Of a DNA stretch of 64,000 nt, positions 4,985 through 11,768 are shown one piece after another. Position 1 is the first letter of the stretch. Every line of letters begins with the position of its first letter. The stretch spans positions 1-64,000 of the forward strand of contig DYJL01000005.1 of NCBI GenBank assembly GCA_020723105.1, given 5' to 3'. This DNA is from Nitrospira japonica. GTDB lineage: Bacteria; Nitrospirota; Thermodesulfovibrionia; UBA6902. The notes under the pieces were generated by a model, which was given only the letters and a program-made list of their open reading frames with translations, searched no databases and was not told the origin of the DNA. The position numbers were made by a program, and so were the translations under genes.

Positions 4985-5377
4985 TTATCTCTTGGAGAAC
5001 TGGAAGCGCTTTCTCGCGCCTTTTTGTCCGTATTTCTTTCTTTCTACAACTCTCGGATCTCTTGTCAAAAAGCCTTCTTTCTTGAGCTTTCCCCTGAAAT
5101 CCGAGTTAACTGATACAAGGGCTCGTGCTATGCCATGTCTTATGGCAGAAGCCTGTCCGGTTACTCCACCGCCGTTTACTCTGATTGTCAAGTCATATTT
5201 TCCGTTTACGCCTACGACATTTAACGGTTGCTGGACAATCATTTTCATGGTTTCATAAGGGAAATAGTCATGGAGCGCTTTTTTATTAATAGTTATATTC
5301 CCAGTTCCAGATTTGATGAATACCTGGGCGATGGATGTCTTTCTTCTGCCTGTTGCATTGTATTGAATATCTGCCAT
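4985..5377 (-). CDS. rpsI: 30S ribosomal protein uS9
   Basis: Ribosomal protein S9 (130 aa) starts with [15 protein letters not shown] and ends in the basic tail [12 protein letters not shown] that reaches the P-site t[24 protein letters not shown] is the family signature region. It follows rplM by 18 bp in the conserved rplM-rpsI pair. Confidence 0.98.
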
Positions 5378-5395
5378 AAGTTAAAGCTCCTTGTA

Positions 5396-5827
5396 TTAAT
5401 TCAAATTTAATATTTCTGGATTTTGTGCTTTGTGTGGATGCTCTGTTCCACTGTAAACTTTTAATTTTTTTAGCTGCTGTCTGCCCAGTTTATTTTTAGG
5501 CAGCATTCCACGAACTGCTAAGATAATAATGTCTTCAGGTGAGTCTTTCATAATATCTTTTGCGGCCTTTTGTTTAATACCACCAGGGTAACCGGAATGC
5601 CGGTAATATAGTTTATTCTCAAGCTTGTTACCGGTAAAACGGACTTTATCAGCATTTACAACAATAACAAAATCCCCGGTATCTACATGCGGCGTAAAAA
5701 TCGGTTTGTCTTTCCCTCTTAGTATCGAAGCTACTTTTGTGGCGAGTCTGCCAACGATCATACCATCGGCATTGATGACATGCCATTTCTTAACTACATC
5801 TGTATTTTTAGCAAATAAAGTCTTCAT
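5396..5827 (-). CDS. rplM: 50S ribosomal protein uL13
   Basis: Ribosomal protein L13 (143 aa) is an early-assembly large subunit protein. The signature GRLATKVASILRGKDKPIFTP and the C-terminal YSGTEHPHKAQNP are typical. It is the first gene of the minus-strand run rplM-rpsI-argC-argJ-LysM, with a purine-rich GAGAGGGA ribosome site and a promoter about 45 bp upstream. Confidence 0.98.
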   Translation of the reverse strand: MKTLFAKNTDVVKKWHVINADGMIVGRLATKVASILRGKDKPIFTPHVDTGDFVIVVNADKVRFTGNKLENKLYYRHSGYPGGIKQKAAKDIMKDSPEDIIILAVRGMLPKNKLGRQQLKKLKVYSGTEHPHKAQNPEILNLN

Positions 5828-5993: not shown

Positions 5994-6161
5994 TTATATC
6001 CTGTCACATGAACGGCGGGATAATTGTTCCCATGCGTTTGCATCTAATTCTTCTATATAGTCCTCTATGGAGAAAATTTGTCTGCATTCCATGCAGATTA
6101 ATTGTACGGATTTTCATCCGACTTTTAGATTAAGGTTGCCATTGCACTTTTTACATTTCAT
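5994..6161 (-). CDS. Small dual-CXXC selenoprotein (in-frame TGA = Sec)
   Basis: This minus-strand gene of 55 codons is interrupted only by a TGA at codon 16 (6114-6116). The protein has CKKC at residues 3-6, predicted Sec16, CMEC at residues 23-26, then an acidic helix (FSIEDYIEELD) and a final SCDRI with Cys52, ending in TAA. Two CXXC pairs suggest a small zinc ribbon or a redox protein. I recognise the layout as the family NCBI calls 'dual CXXC motif small (seleno)protein', whose function is unknown. The ATG has AGGAG about 10 bases upstream. Reading continues cleanly through TGA with no frame change, and a SECIS-type hairpin begins 16 nt after the TGA. The gene is divergent from fabG and is lost if TGA is read as stop. 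Confidence 0.85.
6081..6116 (-). promoter_or_regulatory. Bacterial SECIS element with UGA codon
   Basis: On the transcribed strand the UGA (6114-6116) is followed by a 16-nt spacer and then a perfect 7-bp stem, UCUGCAU (6091-6097) pairing with AUGCAGA (6081-6087), closed over a GGA loop. Bacterial SECIS hairpins sit within the coding sequence just downstream of UGA and expose a conserved G pair in the apical loop about 16-37 nt from the codon. Here the GG falls about 24 nt away. An AAUU/AAUU pairing may extend the lower stem. It is expected to bind SelB. Confidence 0.82.
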
Positions 6162-6487: not shown

Positions 6488-7234
6488 ATGGTGCTTAAGG
6501 ATAAAACAGTTATTATTAGTGGCGCTTCAAGAGGGATAGGAAGAGCCATTGCAATCGAATTAGCGACGGCAGGAGCCAATATAAGTTTTAACTATTTAAA
6601 AAGTGCCGATGATGCTTTGGTACTGGAAGAAGAGATAAAAGATCTGGGTGGTAATGCTAAATCATTTCAAGCCGATATTAAAGACTATAATGCTGTAACG
6701 TCCTGGGTAGATGATACAAAAAAGATATTTGGCAGCATTGATATAGTAATTAACAATGCCGGTATCATTAAAGACAAGGCCCTTGCACTCATGGAACAGG
6801 CTGATTGGCGAGACGTGATTTCTACTAACCTGGATGGAACTTTCAATCTTACAAGAGCTGCGATTGTCACACTGATAAAACAGAAAAGCGGTGTGGTTAT
6901 TAATGTCAGTTCTGTAAGCGGTATAGTGGGGATGCCGCGCCAGACAAATTATTCTGCTTCCAAGGCCGGGATAATAGGGTTTACCAAAGCCCTTGCCAAG
7001 GAAGTTTCAGCTTATAACATCAGGGTAAATGCAGTGGCGCCTGGTTTTATTGAAACAGAGATGCTGGATGCTTTAAAGGAAGAATATAAGAAACAGGTAT
7101 TGAAAGAAATACCTCTAATGAGATTAGGCAGGCCCCAGGAAGTTGCAAAGGCAGTAAAATTTTTGGTTGGCGACGATGCAAGCTATATTACCGGGCAAAC
7201 GATAGTCATTGATGGCGGAATGAGTATTGTTTAA
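6488..7234 (+). CDS. fabG: 3-oxoacyl-ACP reductase, FabG-type SDR
   Basis: This is an NADPH-dependent short-chain dehydrogenase/reductase that reduces the beta-keto group of acyl-ACP. It has the cofactor motif SGASRGIGRAIA at about residues 10-21, NNAG near residue 90, a catalytic Ser (NVSSVSG), the YSASK active-site motif near residue 155, and the C-terminal VIDGGMS. Length is 248 aa, standard for FabG. It opens the plus-strand lipid module with two ketosynthases downstream, an ACP and a dehydratase. It may serve this special pathway rather than, or as well as, housekeeping fatty acid synthesis. Confidence 0.9.
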   Translation: MVLKDKTVIISGASRGIGRAIAIELATAGANISFNYLKSADDALVLEEEIKDLGGNAKSFQADIKDYNAVTSWVDDTKKIFGSIDIVINNAGIIKDKALALMEQADWRDVISTNLDGTFNLTRAAIVTLIKQKSGVVINVSSVSGIVGMPRQTNYSASKAGIIGFTKALAKEVSAYNIRVNAVAPGFIETEMLDALKEEYKKQVLKEIPLMRLGRPQEVAKAVKFLVGDDASYITGQTIVIDGGMSIV

Positions 7235-7309
7235 GAAATGGATTATAAAGCATACGTTCTTAATTCTTGTTTTTTAGCTTTTACTTGTAGTGTCTATGGT
7301 TAAGCAGTT

Positions 7310-8542
7310 ATGAATAAGAGGCGGATTGTAATAACAGGAATAGGTGTAATTGCGCCTAATGGCATAGGAAAGGAAAGGTACTGGCACGCCCTTAAAGAAG
7401 GCAGGTCCGGGATAAAGCCGGTCAAAAGATTTGATACAGGTAAATTTAAATGTAAGTTGGCGGGTGAGATTGATGATTTTAAGCCTGCAATTTTTCTGGG
7501 CCAAAAGGGTCTTAGGGATATTGAGAGGTCTTCAAGATTATTATGTTCCGCTGCAAAGTTGGCAATTGATGACGCAGGGCTCAAAATCAACGATGACAAT
7601 ACAGATGATATAGGTGTTTGCACCGGAACCACTTTGTCTTCACTATGGAATTTTGCACAATTCGATAAGGAGGCAATTCAGGATGGGCCTCTTTTCACGA
7701 ATGTGGCCCTTTTCCCAGGAACTGTAATGAATGCTGCATCAAGTCAGGTCTCTATCAGATTTAATATACAGGGTTTTAATACAACCATCGCTACAGGATA
7801 CAGCTCCAGTATAGACGCATTGAAATACGCTATAGATTTTATTATGCGGGGACGGATAAAGGCGGTGCTTGTAGGCGGAGTAGAGAGTTTGTCATTGGCA
7901 AATTATACAGGATTTTACCGGCTCGGATTTTTTGCCGGGATAAATGGTGAGGAAGTTTCCTGCCCTTTTGATAAAAGGAGAAACGGGATTGTATTAGGTG
8001 AAGGTTCAGGTGTAATTGTGATAGAAGATGAGGAGCATGCACAGGCCAGAGGGGCGAGAATTTATGCAGAGGTTAACGGCATTGGCAATTGTTTCGATGC
8101 TTACAAGATGGGTAAATATGAACCGGAAGCAAACGGCCTGAAAGAGAGCATGAAAAAAGCGATCAGTAATTCAGGGCTGAACATAAGTGATATTGATTAT
8201 GTCAGCGCATCAGCCAATTCTGTTCCCATGCAGGACAAATTAGAGACCGTAGCGCTTAAAGATGTTTTTGGAAGGTATGCTTACAATATGCCTGTAAGTT
8301 CCATAAAATCCATGACAGGAGAGACGTTCAGTGCAGGCGGCATACTTCAGGTTGCCGCAGCCGTGGGTAGTACGGTTTATGGTTTTATACCGCCAACAAT
8401 TAACTATAAGGAACGAGACGATGACTGCGATCTTGATTATGTAGCAAATAGATCACGGACTGTCAGAGTAAATAATGTACTGATTAATAATTTTGGACCC
8501 GGCGGGAGCAATTCATCATTCATAATATCCAAATATCATTGA
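7310..8542 (+). CDS. Catalytically dead beta-ketoacyl synthase (KS-beta / chain-length-factor-like)
   Basis: This thiolase-fold ketosynthase (410 aa) aligns without gaps to the next ketosynthase in the operon around the active site. All three catalytic residues are replaced: the Cys position is Tyr164 (IATGYSSSID), the first His is Ser (VSASANS) and the second His is Glu (SMTGETFSAGG). The scaffold is otherwise intact (IKSM, GVESL, NNFGPGGSNSS). Loss of the nucleophile with retention of fold is the hallmark of chain length factors that dimerise with an active KS in type II polyketide systems. Its likely partner is the intact KS at 9227-10438. No clear ribosome site is seen, so translation may depend on fabG. 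Substrate is unknown. Confidence 0.82.
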   Translation: MNKRRIVITGIGVIAPNGIGKERYWHALKEGRSGIKPVKRFDTGKFKCKLAGEIDDFKPAIFLGQKGLRDIERSSRLLCSAAKLAIDDAGLKINDDNTDDIGVCTGTTLSSLWNFAQFDKEAIQDGPLFTNVALFPGTVMNAASSQVSIRFNIQGFNTTIATGYSSSIDALKYAIDFIMRGRIKAVLVGGVESLSLANYTGFYRLGFFAGINGEEVSCPFDKRRNGIVLGEGSGVIVIEDEEHAQARGARIYAEVNGIGNCFDAYKMGKYEPEANGLKESMKKAISNSGLNISDIDYVSASANSVPMQDKLETVALKDVFGRYAYNMPVSSIKSMTGETFSAGGILQVAAAVGSTVYGFIPPTINYKERDDDCDLDYVANRSRTVRVNNVLINNFGPGGSNSSFIISKYH

Positions 8543-8554
8543 GGAGGGAAGCAT

Positions 8555-8791
8555 ATGAGTATTGAAGCGGAAATAAGGGAGATGGTTTCGGAGATCACTG
8601 AGGTTCCTGTTGAGAAACTTACACCCGAGGCAGATTTTTTTAAAGACCTGAATGTAGATTCTTTGAAGGCGATAGAGATTGTGGCAGCTTTTGAAAAAAA
8701 GTTCAGGATTATTGTCCCTGAAAACGATATACCAAAAATCAGGAATATCAGTCAGATTGTTGAATATACAAAGAATATAAAAAAAGATTGA
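8555..8791 (+). CDS. Acyl carrier protein
   Basis: This 78-aa acidic helical protein carries the phosphopantetheine attachment motif LNVDSLKAIEI, with Ser36 as the modified residue. It follows the dead ketosynthase by 12 bp, behind GAGGAGG, and precedes the dehydratase by 1 bp. It differs from canonical FabD/FabF-linked AcpP in that it sits inside a specialised module, so it is probably the dedicated carrier for this pathway. The holo-ACP synthase at 53790 could activate it. Confidence 0.92.
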   Translation: MSIEAEIREMVSEITEVPVEKLTPEADFFKDLNVDSLKAIEIVAAFEKKFRIIVPENDIPKIRNISQIVEYTKNIKKD

Positions 8792-8792
8792 T

Positions 8793-9230
8793 ATGTTGTG
8801 GGACCGGAAGAAAATTAAATCTATTCTGCCACAGAGAGAGCCCTTTCTTTTTATTGATCAGGTAATTGAAATTGAAGGCGTCGAGAAGGTCGTGGCTGTC
8901 ACACAACTCAGCGGTGATGAAAGTTTTTTCAAAGGACATTTTCCACACAAACCAGTAATGCCTGGCGTCCTGCTCATTGAGGCCATGGCTCAGGCCTCTA
9001 TCATCCTCTATTCCATTGCAAAGCCTAAAGTAGTAAGTACAAATCCGGATTATTATCTTGGTAAAGTTAAGTCTGAGTTTCTTGCGCCAGTATATCCCGG
9101 TGATAAAATAGTTGTAGAATCCAATGCAGTAAAAATTCTGGATAATGCAGCTATAACAGATGTTGTCGCAAAGGTAAATGATAAAATTGTTGCAAAGGCA
9201 AACCTTGTCTTCAGCATTCAAAAGAAATGA
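8793..9230 (+). CDS. 3-hydroxyacyl-ACP dehydratase, FabZ-type hotdog protein
   Basis: This hotdog-fold dehydratase (145 aa) has the FabZ signature GHFPHKPVMPGVLLIEAMAQ, which contains the catalytic His and Glu. It removes water from 3-hydroxyacyl-ACP to give the trans-2-enoyl form. The start lies 1 bp after the ACP stop and the stop overlaps the next ketosynthase as ATGA, so translation is coupled. No enoyl reductase is present in the operon, so the product could stay unsaturated or a housekeeping reductase could act. Confidence 0.9.
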   Translation: MLWDRKKIKSILPQREPFLFIDQVIEIEGVEKVVAVTQLSGDESFFKGHFPHKPVMPGVLLIEAMAQASIILYSIAKPKVVSTNPDYYLGKVKSEFLAPVYPGDKIVVESNAVKILDNAAITDVVAKVNDKIVAKANLVFSIQKK

Positions 9231-10438
9231 ATAACAGAAGGGTTGTTGTAACAGGACTCGGTGTAGTTTCATCTATCGGAATCGGCAGGGAAGATTTCTG
9301 GAAGTCGGTAATCAATGGTAAATCCGGAATAAGCAAGGTCACATCTTTTGACACTACGGAGTATAGATGTCATAATGCCGGTGAAATAAAAGACTTCAAG
9401 CCGGAAGATTTCATTGACAGAAGAAAGATAAACTTTCTGGGCAGGACCTCTCAAATGGCTATCGCCGCAGCATTGATGGCGTTAGAAGATGCAGGTTTGC
9501 ATAATGAGAAAATCGGCAGGAAAAGAACCGGCGTGTTTATGGGGACCACAATGGGTGAAAGGCCGATGGAGGAAACTATTGACGACTGGATAATAGGGGG
9601 TGCAGAAAATCTGAGCAAAACTAAAATTCTGCAATCTCCGCCTAATAATATCCCCACCAATATCGCCAGTTATCTTAAGATCCAGGGTCCCAACTATCTC
9701 ATCCCCACGGCTTGCGCTGCAGGCAATTATGCTATAGGCTATGGCTTTGATTTCATTAAAAAAGGAGAACTTGACTATGCCATTGCGGGCGGCGCTGATG
9801 CATTCTCAAGGCTTGCCTTTACAGGCTTTCACCGGATCTATGCAATGGCTTCTGAGAAATGCCAGCCCTTTGACAAGAACAGAAAAGGGATGCTTGTGGG
9901 AGAAGGCGCAGCCATAATTTTACTTGAATCACTGGAGTCTGCTCTGAGAAGGGGGGCGGACATACATGCAGAGATAGCGGGCTATGGTATCAGTTGTGAT
10001 GCTTATCATATGACGGCTTCGAAGGCAGACGGCATTGGAAGGGCGATACTCAAGGCTTTGAAAGATGCTGACCTTGACAAGGAAGATGTTGATTATATAA
10101 GCGCGCACGGAACTGGAACTCAGGGCAATGACAAAACAGAATGTGCTGCAATCAAGAATGTTTTTAAAGAGCGGTATAAAACAATTCCTGTCAGTTCGAT
10201 AAAATCCATGCTGGGCCACCCCATGGGGGCTGCATCTGCAATTGAGGCGTTGACGTGTTGCCTGGCTGTCAAGAAAAATATTATTCCTCCGACGATTAAC
10301 TTTGAGACTAAAGATCCAGGTTGTGACATTGATTGTGTTCCCAATAAGGCCCGGGTAAAAAGGGTAGATGTAGCTTTAAACAACGGTTTCGCCTTTGGAG
10401 GAAATAATTCGTGCCTGGCGATAAGGAAATTTAACTGA
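9227..10438 (+). CDS. Beta-ketoacyl-ACP synthase II-like, intact catalytic triad
   Basis: This FabF-type condensing enzyme (403 aa) has the full triad: Cys163 in PTACAAGNYAIG, His294 in SAHGTGTQGND and His331 in LGHPMGAAS. It would extend acyl-ACP with malonyl-ACP. It is the only canonical ketosynthase of the module and the probable catalytic partner of the dead homologue at 7310-8542. Its ATG overlaps the dehydratase stop. Confidence 0.9.
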   Translation: MNNRRVVVTGLGVVSSIGIGREDFWKSVINGKSGISKVTSFDTTEYRCHNAGEIKDFKPEDFIDRRKINFLGRTSQMAIAAALMALEDAGLHNEKIGRKRTGVFMGTTMGERPMEETIDDWIIGGAENLSKTKILQSPPNNIPTNIASYLKIQGPNYLIPTACAAGNYAIGYGFDFIKKGELDYAIAGGADAFSRLAFTGFHRIYAMASEKCQPFDKNRKGMLVGEGAAIILLESLESALRRGADIHAEIAGYGISCDAYHMTASKADGIGRAILKALKDADLDKEDVDYISAHGTGTQGNDKTECAAIKNVFKERYKTIPVSSIKSMLGHPMGAASAIEALTCCLAVKKNIIPPTINFETKDPGCDIDCVPNKARVKRVDVALNNGFAFGGNNSCLAIRKFN

Positions 10439-10442
10439 TTTT

Positions 10443-11768
10443 ATGTCAAATGAAAGAAGAGTAGTGATAACAGGTATAGGTCCTCTGGCTTCTACAGGCA
10501 TAGGCAAGGATACTTTCTGGGATGGTATCTTAAAGAAGAGAACAGGTCTGACATTAGAAGAGATTTGTATTGACAACGAAATTTGGGATAAATTCTATTT
10601 GCATAAAATTGAGGATTTCGATATAGAGAAGTTCAATATCGAAGAAAAAATAATTGATGATATTAAGACATGGAAAAAGGGAGGAGAAGATAGGGATCTT
10701 TACTATTTATTAGCAGCAGTCAAATTAGCTATAGATGACAGTAAAATTTGCTATGATAAAACCAATAACGATATTGGGTTGTTTCTAACTGTTGAACATC
10801 CGGGATTTGAAGCATTCTGTGAAGAAATGATTAGAGATACAGCAGAATATCTTGAGAAAGCTTCCCGTACTGCCAATTTTTCCAAGTTTAATCTATTCAA
10901 ATATCTTTTTGAACGATTTGCCCCAAAGGGCTACGATCTTCAGAGTTTTATGTATTTATATTTCATTGCAAAGTCATTTGGTATTCATGGATATTCTTTA
11001 TTTACTAACAATGCCTGTGCCTCAGGATTGTATGCTATGGAATCTGCTGCAAGACAGATAAAGTACGGAGGAAGTAATATTGTTTTACTCGCAGGTGGAG
11101 ATGTTTCAAGCACAATGTTTAAACATTTGTGGTTTAGAAAGAATGGCCTTTATGCTGAAGATGGACGAATAAAGCCTTTCGCAAAAAGTGCAGATGGAAT
11201 GGTTCTTGGCGATGGAGCCTCGGCTATGGTATTGGAAGAGCTGGAACATGCTTTAAACAGAAATGCATATATTTATGCAGAGTATGTGGGAGAGGGTTTC
11301 TCCTTAGAAGGCTGGAAAGTGACATTGCCGCAAGTAGGAAGTCTCTCCTATCAGAGTGCTATTACAGGCGCTTTGAAGAAGGCTAAAGTTGAACCATGCG
11401 ATATTGATTTGATCGTTCCTCATGGAGTTGCCCTTAAGGCCACAGATGGTTATGAATCAAAAGCAATTACAGATATTTTTGGCAAGAATATACAGAAGCC
11501 TTTCATAACTGTATTCAAGCCGTACGTAGGACACAATCTTGGTGGGAGTGCGATTATAGAAAGCATAATTTTGCTTCTATCTATGGATAAAGGCATAATC
11601 CCTCCGGTTTTGCATAGCGATGAAACTGAACCAAAATATCATATTGAGTTGGTAAGAGAATGGCTTTCATATAATTTAACTACAACCATGAAATTATCCT
11701 GTGGTTTTGCAGGATATAATGCAGCAGCAATTTTTAGAAAGATAAAGACTACGCATATATGCAGTTAA
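10443..11768 (+). CDS. Divergent third ketosynthase
   Basis: This divergent ketosynthase-fold protein (441 aa) keeps a possible triad: Cys192 in NNACASGLYAME, His327 in VPHGVALKATDG (HGTGT degenerate) and His364 in YVGHNLGGSA. It has about 40 extra residues in the N-terminal half (roughly 75-150) compared with FabF. It starts 4 bp after the preceding ketosynthase, and its 3' end overlaps the sensor kinase gene by 10 bp. It may be a starter or terminal condensing enzyme, as three-ketosynthase modules such as aryl polyene clusters have. That comparison is inference from gene arrangement only. Confidence 0.75.
   Translation: MSNERRVVITGIGPLASTGIGKDTFWDGILKKRTGLTLEEICIDNEIWDKFYLHKIEDFDIEKFNIEEKIIDDIKTWKKGGEDRDLYYLLAAVKLAIDDSKICYDKTNNDIGLFLTVEHPGFEAFCEEMIRDTAEYLEKASRTANFSKFNLFKYLFERFAPKGYDLQSFMYLYFIAKSFGIHGYSLFTNNACASGLYAMESAARQIKYGGSNIVLLAGGDVSSTMFKHLWFRKNGLYAEDGRIKPFAKSADGMVLGDGASAMVLEELEHALNRNAYIYAEYVGEGFSLEGWKVTLPQVGSLSYQSAITGALKKAKVEPCDIDLIVPHGVALKATDGYESKAITDIFGKNIQKPFITVFKPYVGHNLGGSAIIESIILLLSMDKGIIPPVLHSDETEPKYHIELVREWLSYNLTTTMKLSCGFAGYNAAAIFRKIKTTHICS

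What the first reader, a model, noticed from the sequence alone, without database searches (positions are those of the whole stretch)
5994..6161. Hidden selenoprotein gene with in-frame TGA and SECIS hairpin
Reading the minus strand gives 55 codons with a single in-frame TGA at codon 16, between two CXXC motifs, and TAA only at the end. A perfect 7-bp stem with a GGA loop starts 16 nt after the TGA. The ATG has AGGAG. The downstream reading (CMEC, acidic helix, C-terminal CDRI) is typical protein sequence, not random. The family is known to me as a small dual-CXXC (seleno)protein of unknown function. Conventional gene callers would miss it. It implies SelA/B/C/D in this genome.
Basis: partly seen in the sequence, partly recalled or inferred. 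Interest (0 to 1): 0.85.

Follow-up and report, generated by a model that had tools for sequence, protein, structure and literature searches.

The report
Small dual-CXXC selenoprotein, known family

Summary
The minus-strand frame 6161-5994 encodes a 55-residue protein with one in-frame UGA (codon 16) between CKKC and CMEC. It scores 56 bits (cut-off 40) against NCBIfam NF041197, "dual CXXC motif small (seleno)protein", described earlier as OS_HP3 and later as "hypothetical protein DW". The same genome holds selA, selB, tRNA-Sec(UCA) and a selD that itself has an in-frame TGA. Of 150 related genomes 125 carry the gene; 121 of 126 copies have TGA and 5 have a Cys codon at that position. Selection continues past the UGA (pN/pS 0.22). 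The hairpin after the UGA is under selection beyond the protein: Cys codons inside it are TGC in 212 of 228 cases, against 129 of 226 outside it in the same genes, and its outer pair covaries. Three of five Cys copies lie in genomes without intact selA and selB. The protein is predicted, at modest confidence, to be a zinc ribbon with Sec near the tip of its first beta-hairpin. Its function is unknown; a reactive selenol on a zinc-ribbon scaffold is the best guess (about 35%). New member of a known kind; interest low to moderate.

The parts
5994..6161 (-). Selenoprotein gene, 55 codons plus TAA, NF041197 family
   Evidence: Translation with TGA=U; NCBIfam NF041197 56.2 bits, cut-off 40; aligned with 114 homologues
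6114..6116 (-). Sec-UGA, codon 16
   Evidence: TGA in 121 of 126 matches; Cys codon in the other 5
6081..6097 (-). bSECIS-type hairpin TCTGCAT-GGA-ATGCAGA, loop 6090-6088; overlaps codons I22-R27, including the second CXXC
   Evidence: stem kept in 91.6% of cells over 112 Sec homologues, covariation above all shuffles and slid controls, TGC codon bias at C23/C26
6170..6174 (-). AGGAG ribosome-binding site, 8 nt before the ATG
   Evidence: Sequence
6144..6155 (-). First CXXC (C3, C6): predicted metal knuckle
   Evidence: C3 in 117/117 and C6 in 119/119 homologues; zinc-ribbon-like fold
6084..6095 (-). Second CXXC (C23, C26): predicted metal knuckle, also part of the SECIS stem
   Evidence: 119/119 homologues
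6006..6008 (-). C52, candidate resolving cysteine near the C-terminus
   Evidence: Cys in 101 of 116 homologues, otherwise Ser or Ala; role inferred
4985..5827 (-). Downstream same-strand genes rplM (5827-5396) and rpsI (5377-4985): neighbours, not part of the feature
   Evidence: names by eye; rplM is the next gene downstream in 29 genomes, almost all of the window's own family

Best explanation
The locus is a real selenoprotein gene of the NF041197 family. Shown by comparison: UGA16 is a sense codon, exchanged with Cys codons among relatives, with protein-level selection on both sides and an mRNA hairpin kept beyond what the protein needs. Inferred from established selenocysteine biology: SelB-GTP carrying Sec-tRNA(Sec) is recruited by the hairpin, whose loop starts 23 nt after the UGA, and inserts Sec at position 16; SelA and SelD supply Sec on tRNA(Sec). 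Inferred for the protein: C3/C6/C23/C26 bind zinc as a small zinc ribbon, Sec16 sits near the tip of the first beta-hairpin, away from the knuckles, as a reactive selenol, and the near-conserved C52 could resolve a selenenyl-sulfide. On this reading it is a small thiol/selenol redox or electrophile-reacting protein (about 35% for that function). The confidence given is for the gene being translated with Sec.
For: NF041197 match 56.2 bits over a cut-off of 40. selA, selB, tRNA-Sec(UCA) and selD in the same genome. Homologues in 125 of 150 relatives, 121 of 126 with TGA, 5 with TGT/TGC at the same place. pN/pS 0.22 after the UGA against 0.19 before it, among ten genomes of the genus. Hairpin: 111 of 114 Sec copies satisfy the bSECIS geometry and 109 also the energy limit; hairpin score 16.5 against 11.4 for synonymous recodings, Wilcoxon p 4e-19, phylogeny not corrected; TGC 212/228 at C23/C26 against 129/226 at C3/C6; CGC 72/76 at Arg22 although AGG and AGA are the commonest Arg codons nearby; 35 cells with changes on both sides against 10.3 in shuffles and 7-15 when slid. 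Three of five Cys copies are in genomes without intact selA and selB, against 4 of 120 genomes with Sec copies (Fisher p 0.001). Zinc-ribbon-like model and weak zinc-ribbon hits.
Against: No protein or selenium measurement exists for this organism. CMEC codons alone tend to make part of the hairpin; for this single gene the excess over synonymous recodings is modest (hairpin p 0.015, energy p 0.245). Four Sec-form genomes showed neither selA nor selB (three of these still have tRNA-Sec, so missing contigs or missed matches are likely). The fold model is of medium confidence (pLDDT 71, pTM 0.46) and no PDB match passes E 0.001. No gene neighbour is kept across families, so context gives no function.
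Confidence: 0.96

Rival explanations
1. The UGA is a true stop: a 15-codon peptide or a decayed pseudogene, with the downstream frame a relic.
For: UGA is a stop by default; the 15-codon product would still have a start and a ribosome-binding site.
Against: 121 copies keep the same UGA with no other inner stop, selection after the UGA is about as strong as before it, and Cys replaces it in relatives.
Confidence: 0.01
2. The UGA is decoded, but as Cys or another standard residue rather than as Sec (for example by a selC*-type tRNA(Cys) with a second SelB).
For: Such tRNAs exist in Nitrospirae (review PMC7609411), and tRNA-Sec-like tRNAs with a GCA anticodon and U73 beside a second selB occur in several genomes of family f18 of this class.
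Against: The window's own genome has one tRNA-Sec match over the cut-off, with anticodon UCA and G73, and one selB over the cut-off; the selC*-like genes seen here belong to another family and read Cys codons, not UGA.
Confidence: 0.03
3. It is a selenoprotein, but Sec16 is a metal ligand or structural residue rather than a redox-reactive group.
For: Four invariant Cys form a natural metal site and Sec lies between them in sequence; Cys can replace Sec in five copies.
Against: The model puts residue 16 in the turn between strands 9-14 and 19-23, at the hairpin end away from the CXXC knuckles (medium confidence), and Cys never became the common form although it would bind metal as well.
Confidence: 0.2

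Closest known systems
NCBIfam NF041197, dual CXXC motif small (seleno)protein (OS_HP3 of Zhang and Gladyshev 2007; 'hypothetical protein DW' of Xiao and Zhang 2025, deep-Sep)
   Same: Full-length match, Sec between two CXXC motifs, bSECIS hairpin, Sec/Cys pairs among homologues
   Different: Nothing essential. The review's table gives the Sec motif as RxU or GxU; here the residue just before Sec is Gly and the one after is Lys. The papers read name Desulfosarcina and the Olavius symbiont; this one is in Nitrospirota, in or near Thermodesulfovibrionia
Zinc-ribbon folds (RPB9/RPC10, topoisomerase I zinc ribbon, ATCase regulatory chain)
   Same: Predicted two CXXC knuckles joined by a beta-hairpin; weak Foldseek and Pfam similarity
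   Different: No significant sequence or fold match; Sec near the hairpin tip and a C-terminal helix with a near-conserved Cys
Thioredoxin- and glutaredoxin-type selenoproteins (UxxC, CxxU)
   Same: Small, Sec-containing, Sec exchangeable with Cys
   Different: No UxxC or CxxU motif and no thioredoxin fold; Sec stands alone between two CXXC pairs

Membership tests
NF041197 dual CXXC motif small (seleno)protein | Score over the curated cut-off (40 bits) over the full model | tested here: met
   56.2 bits, profile 1-53 of 53
NF041197 dual CXXC motif small (seleno)protein | Two CXXC motifs with Sec or Cys between them | tested here: met
   C3/C6, U16, C23/C26
Bacterial selenoprotein gene | In-frame UGA with Cys at that position in homologues | tested here: met
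   TGT in G130, G131, G128; TGC in G109, G101
Bacterial selenoprotein gene | bSECIS hairpin downstream of the UGA | tested here: met
   Geometry met; best folded stretch -9.2 kcal/mol against a -7.5 limit, hairpin with short flanks -7.4; comparative support. bSECISearch itself was not available
Bacterial selenoprotein gene | selA, selB, selC and selD in the genome | tested here: met
Bacterial selenoprotein gene | Selenium incorporated in the protein | not testable with these tools
   Needs 75Se labelling or mass spectrometry
Zinc ribbon | Two CXXC knuckles and a beta-hairpin | tested here: inconclusive
   AlphaFold2 model pLDDT 71, pTM 0.46; zinc-ribbon proteins among the top fold matches but none below E 0.36

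The most novel reading that the evidence does not exclude
A selenocysteine carried near the tip of a zinc-ribbon beta-hairpin as the reactive group of a new, non-thioredoxin kind of redox or electrophile-handling protein, widespread in one class of Nitrospirota, with its SECIS built into the codons of the second zinc knuckle.
Probability: 0.3. Interest if true: 0.5.

Novelty: new member of a known kind. Interest (0 to 1): 0.27.

Why it matters
It confirms that a tool-free reading found a real selenoprotein that a plain ORF caller does not list. It also gives a deep comparative set for an uncharacterised family: 121 Sec and 5 Cys copies in 125 genomes, with Sec-to-Cys exchange going along with loss of the Sec machinery in part of the cases. 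The family's function remains open and is easy to test because the protein is only 55 residues long.

Tried and rejected
Rfam search of the locus found nothing. Gene neighbourhoods: rplM-rpsI-argC-argJ follow the gene in the window's own family, but other families have YacP-like NYN, rpsT, a purH-like gene, YkgJ-like CxxC or multihaem cytochrome genes next to it, so no functional partner could be named (gene names by eye from the sequences). No phage record matches. The original 2007 paper is not in the library. I considered that the hairpin is only a by-product of coding for CMEC and rejected it on the codon evidence. I considered decoding as Cys by a selC*-type tRNA and found no such gene over the cut-off in this genome.

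Full report
Observation. The minus-strand frame at 6161-5994 is exactly as described: 55 codons, a single TGA at codon 16, CKKC before it and CMEC after it, TAA at the end, AGGAG 8 nt before the ATG, and a perfect 7-bp stem with a GGA loop beginning 16 nt after the TGA. The opposite strand carries a 69-aa open frame over the same place.

Family. The protein with Cys in place of U scores 56.2 bits (cut-off 40, E 2.7e-15) against NCBIfam NF041197, 'dual CXXC motif small (seleno)protein'. A 2026 review lists that accession twice: as OS_HP3, from the Olavius algarvensis delta-1 symbiont paper of Zhang and Gladyshev (2007), and as 'hypothetical protein DW' from the deep-Sep paper, found in Desulfosarcina (PMC13188914; PMC12013277). 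I saw no function given for it there. Near relatives with names are Nitrospirota MAGs, one titled Thermodesulfovibrionia.

Machinery. The same genome has selA (C94:32164-33261), selB (C94:33466-35325), tRNA-Sec with anticodon UCA (C94:115803-115896, 74.5 bits) and selD (C88:3446-4357, itself with one in-frame TGA).

Homologues. NF041197 was found in 125 of 150 related genomes, 126 copies, of which 121 have one in-frame TGA and 5 none. I read 119 copies: 114 TGA, 3 TGT, 2 TGC at the codon aligned with U16; C3, C6, C23 and C26 are invariant where aligned; Y35, D40, W44, R50 and R54 are nearly so; C52 is Cys in 101 of 116. In an even draw over the phylum 152 of 396 genomes have it; 11 of those lie outside the class. 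Among ten genomes of the genus pN/pS is 0.19 before the UGA and 0.22 after it, so the downstream part is protein-coding.

Hairpin. The stem overlaps the codons of the second CXXC, and TGC-ATG-GAA-TGC is partly self-complementary, so a hairpin could arise without selection on RNA. Four results bear on this. (1) Over 114 Sec copies the best hairpin scores 16.5 against 11.4 in synonymous recodings with local codon usage, and the energy is -11.4 against -8.2 kcal/mol (the sequences are related, so the p-values are too small). (2) Cys codons inside the hairpin (C23, C26) are TGC in 212 of 228 cases; those outside it in the same genes (C3, C6) in 129 of 226 (Fisher p 7e-20), and 61% in nearby genes. 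Arg22, at the foot of the stem, is CGC in 72 of 76 cases although AGG and AGA are the commonest Arg codons nearby. (3) The stem is kept in 91.6% of cells, with 35 cells changed on both sides against 10.3 in shuffles and 7-15 when the partner is slid; the outermost pair shows GC, AU, UA and CG. (4) 111 of 114 Sec copies meet the bSECIS geometry, 109 with the energy limit. Three of the five Cys copies also meet both criteria, so passing the model alone is not specific.

Sec-Cys exchange. G130 and G109, with Cys, have no selA, selB or tRNA-Sec match; G131, with Cys, has only broken selA fragments beside a tRNA-Sec gene and no selB; G128 and G101, with Cys, still have the machinery. Four genomes with Sec copies (G011, G012, G091, G119) lack matches to both selA and selB, three of them with tRNA-Sec present. 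Fisher p is 0.001, not corrected for phylogeny or for incomplete assemblies.

Fold and function. AlphaFold2 with 115 sequences gives strands 9-14, 19-23 and 29-31 and a helix 41-48 (pLDDT 71, pTM 0.46). Fold matches are zinc-ribbon and zinc-finger proteins without significance, and single members hit many zinc-ribbon Pfam models weakly. Residue 16 lies in the turn between strands 1 and 2. My reading is a zinc ribbon presenting a selenol, with C52 as a possible resolving thiol; this is inference, about 35%.

Side result. In family f18 several genomes carry a second selB and a tRNA-Sec-like gene with anticodon GCA and U73, next to each other in G101, G105, G147 and G148. This matches the selC* tRNA(Cys) type known from Nitrospirae among others (PMC7609411), so it is not new, but G101 is also one of the genomes whose NF041197 copy has a Cys codon.

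Verdict. It is a new member of a known selenoprotein family of unknown function.

Noticed in passing
L157:2125-4134, L161, L162, L163, L164, L159:2361-2460: Genomes of family f18 carry a tRNA-Sec-like gene with GCA in the anticodon loop and U73, beside a second selB in G101, G105, G147 and G148: the selC* tRNA(Cys) type. In G101 (L157) YedF-like and cysteine-desulfurase-like genes (by eye) stand beside it. G091 (L159) has such a tRNA next to 5S rRNA and no selB match.
   Followed up: partly
L165 (G131:C105:4000-6000): Broken selA fragments, one with a TAA, beside an intact-looking tRNA-Sec gene, in a genome without a selB match whose NF041197 protein has Cys: a Sec system in decay.
   Followed up: partly
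L018 (G000:C88:3446-4357): selD of the window's own genome has one in-frame TGA and is probably itself a selenoprotein.
   Followed up: no
L143:4001-4117 (G065:C1:1672647-1672763): A second, divergent NF041197-like copy with TGA (25.7 bits, below the cut-off) in G065.
   Followed up: no
window 6488-11768 (+): Divergently placed fatty-acid or polyketide-like cluster: fabG-like reductase, several ketoacyl synthases, acyl carrier protein and a dehydratase-like gene (by eye).
   Followed up: no
window 6114-6116: The review's motif for NF041197 (RxU or GxU) does not fit the residues seen here (mostly G-U-R/K); I could not see its reference sequences.
   Followed up: no
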